From NCBI GenBank assembly GCA_020283715.1, contig JAIQCW010000062.1, forward strand, positions 1 to 64,000: a stretch of DNA of 64,000 nucleotides, read 5' to 3'. Source of the DNA: Cytauxzoon felis (Eukaryota; Apicomplexa; Aconoidasida; Piroplasmida; Theileriidae). The stretch's first letter is position 1. Each line of letters opens with the position of its first letter. The translations under genes were made by a program, and so were the position numbers. The notes below the pieces were generated by a model. It did no database searches and had not been told where the DNA came from. It worked only from the letters and a program-made list of their open reading frames with translations. Below are positions 1 through 62,660 of the stretch, one piece after another.

Positions 1-132
1 AGCCACTCCCGGAGATCGTGGCGAAGAATCCGAGACGATCCATGGGAGTCGAGGTGAGGTAATTAAAAGAGCTGACGGCAGGACCGACCACAGGTGGAAT
101 AGAGAAGTGTAGTGATTGGACTTCAGATTGAG
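1..132. repeat. Modular repeat 1, in IMPDH intron
   Basis: Starts inside module F, continues through D (AAGAGCTGACGGCAGGAC) and ends with an A-like GGACTTCAG motif. It lies in the second intron of IMPDH and is cut by the window edge. Confidence 0.9.
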
Positions 133-469
133 TAATTGTTTCATTCTTTATGTATTTCTTACCCTAGTAGTGCCATAGCGGTTGCCATTTCTGATTCGGT
201 GATGGTATCCATGGGTGGTGAGATGATGGGTGTTCTAAGTTTAATTTTTTTGGTGAGTTGTGTTGATAGATCTACATTTGACAATGGTCCGGATACATAT
301 CCTATAGATGTATGAGATGAGGTAGGATTAAAAGAGTGGTGTGGTATAATGATGATACATGTATTAGATATTAAATAGATTACATACCGGGTAATAATAT
401 AAGATCATCATATGTTAATGCTTCTAATGAATATTCGAATAGTTGTTGAACAGAAAATCCATCGGCCAT
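1..469 (-). CDS. IMPDH: IMP dehydrogenase (5' exons, gene continues left of window)
   Basis: Inosine-5'-monophosphate dehydrogenase oxidises IMP to XMP, the committed step to guanine nucleotides, in the cytosol. Exon 1 is 469-388 and starts [11 protein letters not shown], running to YDDLILLPG. Exon 2 is 301-163 and carries the conserved strand ending [19 protein letters not shown], matching the start of the family's TIM barrel. The 86-nt intron (387-302) has GTATGT and TATAG ends. A second donor GTAAGA begins at 162; that intron contains a modular repeat and leaves the window, so the catalytic Cys loop and CBS domains are not visible. Identification is secure from these two motifs; the rest of the gene lies outside. 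Confidence 0.93.
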
Positions 470-684
470 ATCTTAAGTATGGAATTAAAAATAACATTAG
501 AATTAATTAAAGATATAAAGATAATATAATTAATTTAGTCATACTATTAAATAATTAACAATTTTTTTTAAAAATATATATCTCTAATCATAATAATATT
601 TATAATACTATAAGGTAGTAAATCTTAAACACACTATTGTGTAACGTCTAAATATATTATAAATTAATGCATATTAAATTTAGA

Positions 685-1208
685 TTATAATGCTGTGCCT
701 CTTTCTAAATTTTGTTTAATCTCTTTTGAATATTCACCAAATGATCTATCTAATTTTTTATTAAATATACGATTCCTCTCATTAATATATGATATATCTT
801 TCATATCATCATCATATAATCTTCTTCTACTAAATTCACTCCTATATTAAATTATTATTTTATTAATATCTATAATGATTTTTTTATAATACGCACCTCT
901 TTTTATATTGTTTTTCTAAATTTCTAACCATCATATCTTTAGATAATTCTGATGCATTGAAATCTATAAGACCTGGATCATAAAATGAATCACCCATCAT
1001 TAATTTCTGATAATCATATAAATTTTTATTAAATTCTGTCTCATTTAATCTAAATTAATATAAATTATCATATATATAATTTTATAATTTACCTCTTCTT
1101 ATGTGCTCTATATAAAGCATCCTGATTAAACACATTCCAACCAAACTCCCTCTTTTTATTCTTACTATTCTCCAATTTAGATAACTTCTCTACCGCTAAT
1201 GCAGGCAT
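685..1208 (-). CDS. SYF2: SYF2-like pre-mRNA splicing factor
   Basis: SYF2 (p29/NTC31) is a component of the Prp19/NineTeen complex in the spliceosome. Three exons join in frame: 1208-1093, 1049-897 and 841-685. Exon 1 has the diagnostic [18 protein letters not shown], exon 2 the acidic linker with YDPGLIDFN, and exon 3 ends in the conserved [13 protein letters not shown]. The product is about 160 residues, shorter than animal SYF2. The ATG at 1208 is directly preceded by ACAG, which looks like a splice acceptor, so an upstream exon beyond the large composite repeat (1245-1773) is possible and the true N terminus is uncertain. Confidence 0.88.
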
Positions 1209-1244
1209 CTGTATAATATTTATCTCAAATTAATTAATGAAATC

Positions 1245-1773
1245 TCCACCTGAGGTCGTCCTGCCGTCAGCTCTCCACTTGAAGTCCAATCCTACTCTTC
1301 TTCCACTCGCCGTGGTAGCCTCTTTTATTTACTTCCCCTTCCAGCTCCCGTAGATCGCTTCCAGGTTCCACTTCCACTTGAGGTCCAATCACGGCGAGAT
1401 ATGAATAAAGTGACTATATTCATGTTTGAAGGGATATTTCAATGAATATAAATTGGAATGAAGTGAGGATTATCAAACTCAATACAATCATCAAGGTCCT
1501 CTACAATGAAGTATTGACATCAGAATTACATTAAATATTCATTAAGATATCTTCATGAGTTTCCCCAGAAATGATGAAATTCCTTCAAATTTTGGAGGTA
1601 AAAAATAAAGTGGTGGAAAATAGTGATTGGACCTCAGGTGGATTACCCGTAGCTGATCTCAGGGAAGCGAAGGGACAACTAAATAGAGAAGGCCACCACG
1701 GCGAGTGGGAAGATCTCAGGTGGAGAAGCTGTCTGCAAGACGAATGAAGTGGTATGATTGGACTTCGGATGGA
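1245..1773. repeat. Modular repeat 2, composite with long core
   Basis: The left arm (1245-1397) carries modules A, D, B and E2. A unique AT-rich core (about 1398-1612, including GTTTCCCCAGAAAT) follows. The right arm (1613-1773) carries A, E1, B, A and C. The same core recurs at about 7085-7325 and, inverted, at about 61515-61760. The right arm supplies the last residues and stop of the neighbouring cyclophilin ORF. Confidence 0.92.
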
Positions 1774-59815: not shown

Positions 59816-59847
59816 AAAATAACCCCATGTTAATTATGAATATTATA

Positions 59848-60303
59848 TTAGTGTTTTGGCATTATTGGTACGGAGATATCTGTTCCTGCGATTTTTCTTG
59901 ATTTGTATGGTCTTGGTGTTTTTTCTAGTTTGCGATGTTCAAATTCCCATCCAGATGAATTGTTAGATATGGGACAGAATGGATTTGATTGTCTTTTATA
60001 TGGTACAATATTAGGTGTAGCATTACGTAAGAATATTTTATTGACATTAATTTTATCATTAACACATTCAGTTAAATTCTTAAAAATAGTATCAATTTCT
60101 ATAATTAAAATATAATAATTATTGTCTTTTAAAATACCTTTTTGTTGTCTCATTATAGATGTCTTTGCCACCTTTCTCATATAATATTTATAATGCCAAT
60201 CGGTAACATTCCACATCAAATTATCTATAAAAGGATGATAACCATTTTTACCTAATTTTGTACGTCTAGTATATAAACCTTCCCTTAAAAATCTATAAGC
60301 CAT
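59848..60303 (-). CDS. Unknown basic 151-residue protein
   Basis: ORF starting MAYRFLREGLYTRRTKLGKN. Highly basic, with Trp-rich middle (NLMWNVTDWHYKYYMRKVA) and a C terminus rich in Arg/Lys/Pro (KLEKTPRPYKSRKIAGTD). Composition and size fit a mitochondrial ribosomal or other RNA-binding protein, but no family motif is recognised. The modular repeat 30 ends about 30 bp downstream of its stop. Confidence 0.55.
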   Translation of the reverse strand: MAYRFLREGLYTRRTKLGKNGYHPFIDNLMWNVTDWHYKYYMRKVAKTSIMRQQKGILKDNNYYILIIEIDTIFKNLTECVNDKINVNKIFLRNATPNIVPYKRQSNPFCPISNNSSGWEFEHRKLEKTPRPYKSRKIAGTDISVPIMPKH

Positions 60304-60454
60304 TTATAATATTGTATCATCATATATAGACATAGTTACCACGATATATTACCACACATTGTCGACAGTAATGTTGGTATAGACAATTATTTTTCTATTT
60401 AAATAATGTAGACTTTGTAAAGTAGTATAATAATTTAATAAATTTATCTTAAAC

Positions 60455-62500
60455 ATGGATAATATGTTAGCGGATTTCTCCATACTTTGGAGAAAGGTAG
60501 GAATGCTCAACGATTTTTCAAAAATATTAATACCTGATTACGATTTTAATAAGACAACATATACTCAATATATTAATGATATGCATCATCGAAATAATAT
60601 AAATAATGATACTGTAAGCAAATAAGGTTTCATTTTATCTGCAAATGATGTATCGAAGATCGTCCACACTAGATCAATCGTATTGCGGAGAGTTCTCCAC
60701 CTGAGGTCACAGCCTTGTCTTCCACTAGGCGTGGAGTCTCTCCACTTGGGGTCCATCCTGCCGTCAGCTCTTCTAATTACCTATCTCTAAAGAGTATAGC
60801 CACTCCCGGAGATCGTGGCGGAAGTATAGTCACTGGACCTCAAGTGGAATACCTGGAAGCGATCTCTGGGAGCTGGAAGGGGAAGTAAATAAGGAAGCCT
60901 CCACGGCTAGTGGAAGAAGAGTAGGATTGGGCCTCGACTGGAGAGATGTCTTCTAGATGATTGATCGATTACGGAATAATACAATTTATAACTAGTGTTT
61001 CTAGATTTATACTTTACATTTTTTCTATAGCCTATTGACGAGATTTATACACAATTTAATGAGGATGAGGTTATTAATAAATTAAAAACACTTGAAAATC
61101 ATTGGAATAAGTATGTTATGATTCTTATATTAAGTATTTCATTAAATTTTATCTAATTAGGATACTTTATGATGTTGATGAGGACTTATCATCTCTTTTA
61201 GCTAAACACGAGACATTAATAAGAGATATGAGTGAATTAACGATTAAAGATGTTACATTACAAAGGAATTTTAAAAGCATAAACCAAAATTTTAATAATC
61301 TCACACTTAATAAATCACTACTCAAGGTATCTTTTATTAACTCATTTTTATAGAAGATTATTCCTTTCCATTACATATACCCGAGGTTATAACCTCTTCT
61401 TCCACTAGACGTTCCACTTGAGGTCTTTCCACTAGGCGTGGTGCCTCTTCTATTTACTTCCCCCTCCGCTTCCCTGAGATCAGCTGCGGGTAGTCCACTT
61501 GAGGTCAAAAATTCCTAAATTTCACTAACTTCATTTTTACCTCCAAAATTTGAAGGAAAATTTGAATTTCTGGGGAAACTACTGAAGATTGTGGAATGAC
61601 TATTGAACGAATTTCTGATGTTAATACTTCATTGAAAAGGATTTTGATGATTGTATTGAGTTTACTTAACATCACTTAATTCCAGTTTATATTCATTGAG
61701 TTATCCGAACAAACACAGATTACACCACTTTAGACGTATCTCGTCGAGATTAGGTTTATAACATCAAGTGGAACCCGTAGCTGATCTCAGGGAAGCGAAG
61801 GGATAAGTAAATAGGAGAGCTGTCTGCAGGACCTACAGTGGAATGGCGAGTGGAAGAGGAGGTGTAGTAGATTATAGATATGGTTAATATGAATATATAG
61901 GACAAGATATATCAATTGGAGGAGATGTATAGTAATTATAGTAATTATGTTTGTAATGAACGTGAATTGGATGAATTGGAGGGTAATAATGAAATTATAT
62001 CGATGGATGATGGTTTAGATTACATTAGAGATATTGGTATTAAATTGACAACAATGTTACGTTCTATAGATAATTCATTATTATTTTTCAATTTACATAA
62101 TGATTATTATGAATCTGATGAATATATTTATAAATATGAGGTACAAAAAAATAGAATTTATACAATAATAAAATCTATTTTTATACAATTATATACAATT
62201 ATTAATAATAATATACAATCAACAAATAATATTTCAATATCTGAAATTTATAACAAGCATAATAAAATAGGTAATTCTATTAAATATCTTTTGGATTATT
62301 ATACCGATAATATAAATGATAATGATGAATTATTACAATTACAAATGTATTATATCACTAATCGCATTAAAATAATTAATCAAATCATACAACAACAAAA
62401 TAATATCAACAATATACAAAATATCGTACAATTATATAATAACATCACAAATCTTGAAATCATCACATACCATCATACCTTCCCAGAAAAAACATCACAG
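60455..62500 (+). CDS. COG3/Sec34-like tethering subunit, apparently truncated
   Basis: Exons 60455-60613, 61031-61110, 61161-61326 and 61901-62500 (or to the stop at 62515) join in phase to about 335 residues. All helical: an N-terminal heptad region (KHETLIRDMSELTIKDVTL) is followed by RDIGIKLTTMLRSIDNSLLF, FFNLHNDYYESDEYIYKYE and IIKSIFIQLYTII. This order resembles the Sec34 region of COG3, a Golgi tethering-complex subunit (a helix, a short pattern of His/Asn before Tyr, then a long helix). The Asn/Ile-rich remainder ends at CACAG before GTATATTT. COG3 is usually much longer, and a Tpr/mtm-like gene starts 230 bp on, so the gene seems cut short. Introns 1 and 3 carry modular repeats. Confidence 0.5.
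60694..60950. repeat. Modular repeat 31, in COG3-like intron 1
   Basis: A, B (variant), A, D, F, A, E2, B and A (variant). Confidence 0.92.
61380..61863. repeat. Modular repeat 32, composite, inverted core, in COG3-like intron 3
   Basis: Left arm A, A, B and E1; core about 61515-61760 in opposite orientation to repeats 2 and 7 (recognisable by ATTTCTGGGGAAAC); right arm A, E1, C and partial B. Confidence 0.92.
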
Positions 62501-62552
62501 GTATATTTAAGCTAACGAACTCTAAGGGGCCATATTATTGAAGTATTCTATG

Positions 62553-62660
62553 CTCCACCCTAGGTCCAATCCTCTACACATTATAGTACACCCTCTCTTC
62601 GTCCTGCAGACAGCTCTTCTATTTACCTCCCCCTCCGCTTCCCTGAGATCAGCTACGGGT
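62553..62660. repeat. Modular repeat 33, short
   Basis: A, C and E1 only, truncated abruptly. It separates the COG3-like gene from the Tpr/mtm-like gene. Confidence 0.85.

What the first reader, a model, noticed from the sequence alone, without database searches (positions are those of the whole stretch)
1..62660. A family of modular, reversible repeats colonises introns, exons and spacers
Thirty-three copies built from a small module set (A-G) in either orientation occur about once per 1.5 kb outside the 22-39 kb gap. No copy has a transposase, and no two have the same module order, yet the modules themselves are well conserved. Outer edges tend to be A and its reverse complement, like terminal inverted repeats, while inner modules behave like interchangeable cassettes. 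This does not match a standard MITE, LTR remnant or simple satellite, and I know of no described element with this structure.
Basis: partly seen in the sequence, partly recalled or inferred. Interest (0 to 1): 0.9.

Follow-up and report, generated by a model that had tools for sequence, protein, structure and literature searches.

The report
Hairpin repeats invading a parasite's genes
A blood parasite of the Theileria/Babesia group carries thousands of small two-armed, hairpin-rich DNA repeats that sit in spacers and introns and also, in frame, inside the coding regions of housekeeping proteins, much like a curious bacterial element but in a eukaryotic nucleus.

Summary
The window lies in an 8.62-Mb piroplasm (apicomplexan) genome. 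The core GATCTNNGGGA occurs 7,145 times against 14 for the reversed pattern. In 324 kb examined, 233 clusters cover 14%. The order is not free. Units follow one grammar, two outward-facing arms around a centre: E' H' W' Q' - centre - E P W H E. Of 192 neighbouring core pairs 156 face outward; of those, 121 are P/Q, 33 P/P, 2 Q/Q. H is an interchangeable slot. P cores carry six alternative 3-bp stems that stay complementary (210 of 244). Ends are ragged with no target-site duplication, so MITE membership fails on tested features. Among copies with both core types spanned by an open frame of 150 aa or more, 24 of 26 lie in one orientation; copies interrupt calcineurin A and leucyl-tRNA synthetase. 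Others lie inside introns. A 5.8-billion-protein search found no relative of the peptide. Closest analogue: bacterial Rickettsia palindromic elements. Best reading: a selfish, hairpin-bearing, module-swapping family. Movement to new sites was not seen, only inferred.

The parts
7..98 (.). cluster Q' P W g E (GAC-type P core)
1245..1773 (.). long P'/P unit: E' g' E' h' W' P' E' (1245-1384), about 230-nt centre, E P h E a E (1631-1773)
   Evidence: (2-kb query holding this unit: 175 matches, 40 of 2,408 candidates scored)
1970..2249 (-). exonic, in frame in the cyclophilin-domain ORF 1679-3097 (-), sense Q' P P
3461..3827 (.). P' (GAT-type) cluster 3461-3626 and E P W a E g cluster 3717-3827 with another centre between
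4222..4570 (.). rare Q' / Q pair
5434..5782 (-). P' Q cluster
7000..7430 (.). long P'/P unit with 230-nt centre
8865..9143 (-). P' Q unit
10551..10761 (-). P' Q unit inside the dihydrolipoyl dehydrogenase intron 10450-10823
11855..12142 (+). Q' P unit
15508..15588 (+). lone P arm, 3' of the succinate dehydrogenase flavoprotein ORF
19068..19343 (+). Q' P unit
20147..20663 (-). P' P' P' Q, in frame in ORF 19296-21755 (+); one of the two exonic copies in the minority orientation
21781..22085 (+). Q' P unit
39275..39435 (+). Q arm with E' upstream
40262..40509 (+). Q' P P
41621..41755 (.). P' / P (GAT-type)
42666..42872 (-). P' Q (degenerate Q core, seen by eye)
43275..43533 (+). Q' P unit
44912..45193 (+). 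Q' P unit between ORF 44935-46191 (-) and the DUF900 ORF 43597-44928 (-), perhaps one gene
48125..48316 (+). Q' P unit between coding segments of the MCM gene (upstream segment judged by eye)
48996..49197 (-). P' Q unit inside MCM intron 48941-49275
51877..52099 (-). exonic in formin (FH2) ORF 51307-56730 (-), sense Q' P
53383..53599 (-). exonic in the formin ORF, sense Q' P
54005..54119 (-). exonic in the formin ORF, sense Q' P
54742..54978 (-). exonic in the formin ORF, sense Q' P P
57001..57241 (-). P' Q unit with a degenerate second P' (by eye)
58841..59023 (.). P' / P (GAT-type)
59609..59797 (+). Q' P unit
60696..60942 (+). Q' P unit
61376..61842 (.). long P'/P unit with 230-nt centre
62554..62650 (-). 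lone P arm

Best explanation
A lineage-specific selfish DNA family of a piroplasm nucleus that works like the bacterial Rickettsia palindromic elements. Each unit is two outward-facing arms around a variable centre. Each arm is a chain of small hairpin modules: core hairpin P or Q, joint W, one of five hairpins in slot H, and spacer E. SHOWN by computation: copy number; arm grammar; P/Q pairing; slot choice; stems that differ in sequence but stay complementary; exact blocks shared by copies; in-frame copies inside open reading frames of conserved enzymes; intronic copies; no target-site duplication detected. INFERRED: (1) existing copies exchange modules by gene conversion or template switching; (2) new sites are reached by a copying process that reads the strand carrying the G.A-closed hairpins, so hairpin shape rather than exact stem sequence is what propagates; the enzyme is unknown, perhaps only host repair and replication proteins; (3) after insertion, copies decay neutrally, and selection in exons mainly removes copies that break the reading frame.
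For: Copy number 7,145 against 14. Outward neighbours 156 of 192; P/Q 121 against a permuted mean of 75 and maximum of 93 in 2,000 permutations; Q/Q 2 against a permuted minimum of 16. Stems fully Watson-Crick in 210 of 244 P arms against a permuted mean of 92 and maximum of 112 in 1,000, with six different stems. G.A and A.G at the ends of the inner loop in 225 and 201 of 245 P cores; G.T and A.C mismatches about equal (40 and 37, summed by hand), as for neutral decay. The predicted core stems appear in the DNA minimum-energy fold of both P arms tried. Exact blocks between copies: 264 nt (two copies 1.7 kb apart, probably in one ORF; outer arms differ), 96 nt (within one LeuRS ORF), and between distant copies 98 nt (C12/C15), 93 nt (window 11863/43283, 31 kb apart), 74 nt (C4/C68). 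Beyond block ends homology is lost preferentially at W, Q edges and E edges. In-frame copies in calcineurin A, leucyl-tRNA synthetase twice, and in ORFs with SMC hinge, Sec1, MIF4G, Saf4/Yju2, CAF1B-type propeller and Gpi16 matches (10 of 16 ORFs scanned). 24 of 26 spanning copies with both core types in one orientation. Density 0.32/kb inside ORFs of 250 aa or more, 0.96/kb outside. No excess of third-codon-position change in exonic copies. MCM and DLD introns contain elements well inside their splice sites.
Against: No empty site was found: 220 joined-flank queries gave only two spanning hits, both self. Movement to new sites is inferred from dispersal, not seen. The longest exact block (264 nt) is local, so it may be a duplication within one gene rather than exchange between dispersed copies; blocks between distant copies reach only 98 nt. 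The folding programs do not rate the P arms as unusually stable (z -0.34 and +0.17 as DNA, +0.52 and +1.0 as RNA on the GATC strand), and the RNA minimum-energy folds of the P arms lack the predicted core stems; the Q arm folds better than shuffles on both strands (-2.0 and -1.7 as DNA, -3.3 and -2.2 as RNA). Complementary stems come from few source lineages, so the permutation test overstates independence. H is not wholly free: g follows AGC-type P cores in 6 of 58 but GCT-type in 35 of 131. The orientation bias in exons is largely what stop-codon avoidance predicts (non-ORF copies open in 20 versus 7 of 83). Translation of the inserts is not proven; no RNA or protein data.
Confidence: 0.58

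Rival explanations
1. A degenerate family of MITEs: arms are composite terminal inverted repeats with unequal left (Q) and right (P) ends, once moved by a DDE transposase that is now lost.
For: Inverted arms, asymmetric P/Q pairing with almost no Q/Q, no coding capacity seen, old divergence (the long matches to the window's long unit are 79-85% identical).
Against: No target-site duplication above shuffled pairs (55 two-ended copies; lengths 2-9 nt computed; one copy has an 8-nt flank match, 0.4 expected). Ends ragged: E-H repeats of variable number. No DDE_3, rve or Y1 match in the genome; other transposase families not searched. PMC9141347 passages report no class II elements in 64 apicomplexan genomes.
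Confidence: 0.2
2. Conserved regulatory RNA or DNA hairpins (for example protein-binding sites in transcripts or chromatin), kept by selection near most genes.
For: About one core per 1.2 kb; conserved loop, complementary stems; the Q arm folds better than shuffles.
Against: G.T and A.C mismatches are about equal, so no sign that copies keep RNA pairing. Arms lie in both orientations and in ORFs of unrelated enzymes. Absent over 17 kb of tandem genes. Peptide not found in other species' proteins.
Confidence: 0.09
3. Introner-like elements that create the introns they sit in.
For: The element-bearing MCM and DLD introns are 335 and 374 nt, while the second DLD intron, read by eye, is about 44 nt.
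Against: In both introns tested the splice sites lie 55-101 bases outside the element (MCM intron 48941-49275, element 48996-49197; DLD intron 10450-10823, element 10551-10761). Many copies lie in open frames.
Confidence: 0.05
4. A spreading peptide module (a functional protein domain shuffled among genes), with non-coding copies as by-products.
For: One conserved frame, [18 protein letters not shown]...[11 protein letters not shown]...TSGG, in 24 of 26 spanning copies with both core types.
Against: Exonic copies show no third-position excess. Centre lengths in non-ORF copies are near random modulo 3 (36, 25, 21 of 82). Host proteins are unrelated. 195 of 233 clusters lie outside ORFs of 250 aa or more.
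Confidence: 0.05
5. Assembly artefact or contamination.
For: Draft of 181 contigs.
Against: Copies lie inside housekeeping ORFs and introns of the same genome and are mostly well diverged from each other. Core counts on both strands are about equal.
Confidence: 0.01

Closest known systems
Rickettsia palindromic elements (RPE), alpha-proteobacteria
   Same: Short palindromic repeats, many inserted in frame in unrelated protein-coding genes, encoding a conserved peptide (passages of PMC10969869).
   Different: Eukaryotic nucleus; introns too; two-armed P/Q grammar with swap-in hairpin slots; about 7,000 cores rather than the 44 copies the passage gives for R. conorii; no sequence relation shown or tested.
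Double-hairpin / repetitive hairpin-forming elements of fungal and sponge mitochondrial DNA
   Same: Small mobile hairpins scattered in a compact genome; lack of duplications noted for Allomyces elements (passages of PMC2800124).
   Different: Organellar; no P/Q arm pairing or H-slot exchange described in the passages read.
MITEs (class II non-autonomous transposons)
   Same: Inverted ends, no coding capacity, high copy number.
   Different: No target-site duplication detected, ragged ends, no transposase found in the families searched.
Bacterial REP/RAYT (Y1 transposase-linked palindromes)
   Same: Hairpins on one strand, often in paired arrangement (family knowledge recalled, not from a call).
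   Different: No Y1 transposase match in this genome.
Introners
   Same: High-copy elements in introns.
   Different: Splice sites are not at element ends in the two introns tested; in-frame copies in ORFs.

Membership tests
MITE / TIR DNA transposon | target-site duplication of fixed length | tested here: not met
   55 two-ended copies, no offset or length above shuffled pairs (assuming outermost E is the end)
MITE / TIR DNA transposon | precise terminal inverted repeats | tested here: not met
   E outward at 245 of 466 ends only; E also internal
MITE / TIR DNA transposon | related autonomous transposase in the genome | tested here: inconclusive
   DDE_3 and rve none; hAT, MULE, piggyBac, PIF not searched
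Rickettsia palindromic element | in-frame insertion in unrelated protein-coding genes | tested here: met
   open frames only, translation not shown:
Rickettsia palindromic element | palindromic/hairpin sequence of about 150 bp | tested here: inconclusive
   hairpin modules yes, but non-ORF two-armed units average 253 nt
Rickettsia palindromic element | sequence descent from the bacterial families | not tested
   no RPE sequence was compared; one exact Q-core match in genome contigs, in a Gemmatimonadetes MAG, judged chance
Introner | element ends coincide with splice sites | tested here: not met
   two introns (MCM, DLD)
Double-hairpin / RHE elements | hairpin-forming repeats, here with compensated stems | tested here: met
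   (folding energies of P arms unremarkable)
Double-hairpin / RHE elements | located in organellar DNA | tested here: not met
   contig carries MCM, formin and other nuclear-type genes with GT-AG introns
LINE/SINE retroposon | reverse transcriptase source in the genome | tested here: not met
   the only RVT_1 match is a telomerase RT
REP/RAYT | Y1 transposase partner | tested here: not met
   control rang in 5 of 14 genomes
Helitron | Helitron-type Rep/helicase | tested here: inconclusive
   none, but the control was silent

The most novel reading that the evidence does not exclude
An exon-colonising hairpin element family in a eukaryotic nucleus, the first I know of: a selfish two-armed unit that spreads by hairpin shape on single-stranded DNA or RNA, swaps its hairpins as cassettes, and writes a tolerated peptide into dozens to (by extrapolation from the sample) hundreds of proteins of a parasite group otherwise thought poor in transposable elements, using an enzyme of a kind not yet described.
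Probability: 0.4. Interest if true: 0.9.

Novelty: new variant of a known kind. Interest (0 to 1): 0.72.

Why it matters
Apicomplexan genomes are regarded as poor in mobile DNA; PMC9141347 (passages) reports no class II elements in 64 genomes and TE matches in only twenty. A family filling about a seventh of the sampled sequence, and inserted in frame into ORFs of enzymes such as calcineurin A and leucyl-tRNA synthetase, would show that a compact nuclear genome can tolerate pervasive insertion into coding sequence. It would also give a natural series of protein insertions and a hunt for an unknown copying mechanism. Gene prediction, repeat masking and marker choice in this parasite would be affected.

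Tried and rejected
Rfam at gathering score (window): none; permissive on 1200-1800: five weak matches, all below gathering score. Plasmid collection and viral contigs with two core patterns: none; genome contigs one match, judged chance. TSD search: nothing. Empty sites by joined flanks and by paralogous stretches after masking elements (the 70 longest of 452 matches inspected): no filled/empty pair seen; the stretches looked like gene-family members, the 230-nt centre, and another AT-rich repeat family. 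Idea that the element is inherently coding: rejected, because centre length is near random modulo 3 outside ORFs and there is no third-position excess. Idea that the 230-nt P/P centre is a structured RNA: the alignment has almost no indels, but only 2 pairs per strand showed changes on both sides; left open. DNA versus RNA: mismatch symmetry does not favour an RNA kept by selection. The innermost pair of the CCCATTTGGG-type second hairpin would leave a 2-base loop, which fits DNA better (recalled), but only 3 of 125 Q arms show it; not used as proof. Species name: not determined. SDHA is nearest to Babesia duncani (78%), B. divergens (75%), T. equi (74%); T. parva 66%. A FAINT domain suggests the Theileria side (recalled). 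Cytauxzoon felis (9.1 Mb, 31.8% GC, 361 contigs; PMC3748084 passages) was considered and neither shown nor excluded. Literature: 10 searches, judged by titles and starts of abstracts, listed no paper describing this family; one returned nothing; subscription journals are mostly not held. Papers: passages only of PMC9141347, PMC3748084, PMC10969869, PMC10730637, PMC2800124, PMC9860276; abstract and outline of PMC6649704. Limits: E, H and core were called with 1-2 mismatches, so conservation at those positions is biased; the depletion of switch points inside modules is partly by construction; the shuffled pairs were scored at fewer offsets than the real ones, which favours finding a signal.

Full report
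WHERE IT IS. The window is bases 1-64,000 of a 110,670-base contig of an 8,623,106-base genome in 181 contigs. The succinate dehydrogenase flavoprotein (15645-17426, minus) is closest to piroplasms: B. duncani 78%, B. divergens 75%, T. equi 74%; T. parva 66%. An ORF elsewhere in the genome has a FAINT domain, which I recall as typical of Theileria. The species is not determined.

OBSERVATION. Repeat searches show many related families in both orientations. With a module parser built from reading the copies, the window has 37 clusters, 65 cores, 7,295 bases. My sample (window plus 26 ten-kb loci, 324,000 bases of 8.6 Mb) has 233 clusters covering 14.3%. On the reversed sequence a slightly simpler parser, without module W, finds none. 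Across the genome the exact core GATCTNNGGGA occurs 3,565 + 3,580 times, the reversed control 8 + 6. The gap at 22-39 kb is real: 17,190 nt.

ANATOMY. Two cores share one loop. P: CCC-GNA-[3-nt stem]-GATC-TNNG-GGA-[stem']-NGA-GGG. Q: GCCAC-GATCTNNGGGA-GTGGC followed by a second hairpin, CTCTTTAGAG (86 of 125), CCGTTTACGG (23), CCCTTCAGGG (7), CCCATTTGGG (3) and six single variants. Outward of the core comes the joint W (TAAATA/TAATTA), then one hairpin from a set of five in slot H (a GTCTGCAAGAC, b CTCTGCAAGAG, g CTGACGGCAGG, h CCAC-GGCGA-GTGG and variants, m CCATGCAATGG), then E (ACCTCARGTGGA), with further H-E repeats. E also stands on the inner side of 196 of 245 P cores. The grammar is E' H' W' Q' - centre - E P W H E.

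GRAMMAR TESTS. Of 192 neighbouring cores within 345 nt, 156 face outward, 27 run in tandem and 9 face inward. The 156 outward pairs are 121 P/Q, 33 P/P and 2 Q/Q; in 2,000 permutations of type P/Q averaged 75 (maximum 93) and Q/Q averaged 25 (minimum 16). In the first 284 kb, 15 of 26 outward P/P pairs are 296-323 nt apart, and 13 of 20 long P/P units share a 230-nt centre; 11 of those aligned over 228 columns with almost no gaps. All common H types follow the common P stems, but not evenly: g follows AGC-type cores in 6 of 58 and GCT-type in 35 of 131.

HAIRPINS. In 244 P arms the 3-bp stem is fully Watson-Crick in 210; shuffling partners gives a mean of 92 and a maximum of 112 in 1,000 permutations. 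Six different stems occur (GCT 126, AGC 61, GAT 10, AAC 8, AGT 4, GAC 1). The inner loop has G.A in 225 and A.G in 201 of 245; the loop-closing G.A and A.G (372 and 375 of 379) are biased upward by the search pattern. Because G.A on one strand is C.T on the other, the folded form is predicted on the GATC strand of each arm. Across P and Q stems G.T mismatches (40) about equal A.C mismatches (37) (summed by hand), so single copies seem to decay without selection for RNA pairing; the covariation belongs to the source lineages. Folding energies are unremarkable for the two P arms tried (GATC strand: z -0.34 and +0.17 as DNA, +0.52 and +1.0 as RNA); the DNA folds contain the predicted core stems, the RNA minimum-energy folds do not. 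The one Q arm tried folds better than shuffles on both strands (DNA -2.0 and -1.7, RNA -3.3 and -2.2).

MODULE EXCHANGE. L034:8746 and L035:414, 1.7 kb apart on one contig and probably in one ORF that runs across the border of the two fetched loci, share 264 identical bases from slot H' to just before W, while their outer arms differ. Two copies within one LeuRS ORF share 96 nt. Between other copies the longest exact blocks are 98 nt (L022/L025, different contigs), 93 nt (window 11863 and 43283), 83 nt (two sites about 1 kb apart in L011) and 74 nt (L014/L027, different contigs). Beyond the ends of exact blocks of 38 nt or more, homology is lost in 1,457 of 2,463 cases, over-represented at W (2.3-2.5x), Q edges (3.1x) and E edges (1.7x). 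Depletion inside hairpins is partly built into the method. This fits copying between existing units with breakpoints at module joints; local duplication is not excluded for the longest block.

EXONS. Forty-five rows of ORFs of at least 150 aa span whole clusters (two clusters counted on both strands). Of those with both core types facing outward, 24 read Q' to P in the sense direction and 2 the other way. The frame gives [18 protein letters not shown]...[18 protein letters not shown]...TSGG. In calcineurin A (L009:8449-9999) the catalytic domain is split: query residues 215 and 380 align to neighbouring residues (239, 238) of the best calcineurin chain. Leucyl-tRNA synthetase (L024:3321-6284) carries two copies, between conserved blocks ending at 413, spanning 531-558, and starting at 703. 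ORFs with SMC hinge, Sec1, MIF4G, Saf4/Yju2, CAF1B-type propeller and Gpi16 matches also contain copies (10 of the 16 ORFs scanned, one without any match). Density is 0.32 per kb in ORFs of 250 aa or more and 0.96 per kb outside (38 of 233 clusters inside). The orientation bias is largely stop avoidance: among 83 non-ORF two-core copies, 20 are open in the Q'P sense and 7 in the P'Q sense. Exonic copies show no third-codon-position excess, and non-ORF centres are near random modulo 3 (36, 25, 21 of 82), so the peptide looks tolerated rather than selected.

INTRONS. MCM intron 48941-49275 (335 nt) and dihydrolipoyl dehydrogenase intron 10450-10823 (374 nt) contain elements with 55-101 bases of other sequence on either side; exons joined in frame read as the expected protein. 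Splice sites are not element ends.

MOBILITY EVIDENCE. No target-site duplication above shuffled pairs in 55 two-ended copies; one copy has an 8-nt flank match where 0.4 is expected. No empty site in 220 joined-flank queries (two spanning hits, both self) nor among the masked paralogous stretches inspected. The only reverse transcriptase match is a telomerase RT. Y1, DDE_3 and rve gave nothing with working controls; Helitron gave nothing but its control was silent; other transposase families were not searched. Of 1,362 candidates in the 5.8-billion-protein set none matched the peptide at E of 1 or less (only proteins 0.55-1.75 times the query's length were eligible, and C. felis may not be in the set).

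COMPARISON. Rickettsia palindromic elements (PMC10969869, passages) share in-frame insertion in unrelated genes with a conserved peptide. Organellar hairpin elements (PMC2800124, passages) share small scattered hairpins; lack of duplications is mentioned for Allomyces. Coding palindromes in nematomorph mitochondria (PMC6649704, abstract and outline) show inverted repeats within genes. MITE and introner membership fail on tested features. I file it as a new variant of the palindromic or hairpin selfish repeat kind, working like RPEs, not as a member of any named family.

Noticed in passing
window 24,900-37,300: Tandem array of membrane-protein-like ORFs sharing a DQCWNIL motif and repeated stretches, no Pfam match in the three ORFs scanned; free of the hairpin repeats. 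Possibly Tpr-like (not tested).
   Followed up: partly
window 14,616-14,890; L030:7911-8258: A second, AT-rich repeat of about 320 bp with stops in all six frames of the three copies translated, roughly 80% identical between copies; 41 matches from 40 scored of 190 candidates in the genome, sometimes lying between arms of the hairpin repeats (L024:8771-9062).
   Followed up: partly
window 1392-1621, 7083-7335, 61506-61764: 230-nt centre of the P/P class: almost no indels among 11 aligned copies, internal inverted repeats, no Rfam match at gathering score; nature unknown.
   Followed up: partly
window 3626-3714; L034:8811-8945: Another centre family with repeated ACCCGGAAGAACG-like stretches, associated in part with GAT-type P cores.
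   Followed up: no
L024:6908-7597 and 9299-9987: Two direct copies of a roughly 700-bp stretch, 74% identical overall with a 131-nt exact block, perhaps recent conversion; outside the called hairpin clusters.
   Followed up: no
L034:1640-3271: FAINT-domain (PF04385) ORF carrying a Q' arm in frame.
   Followed up: no
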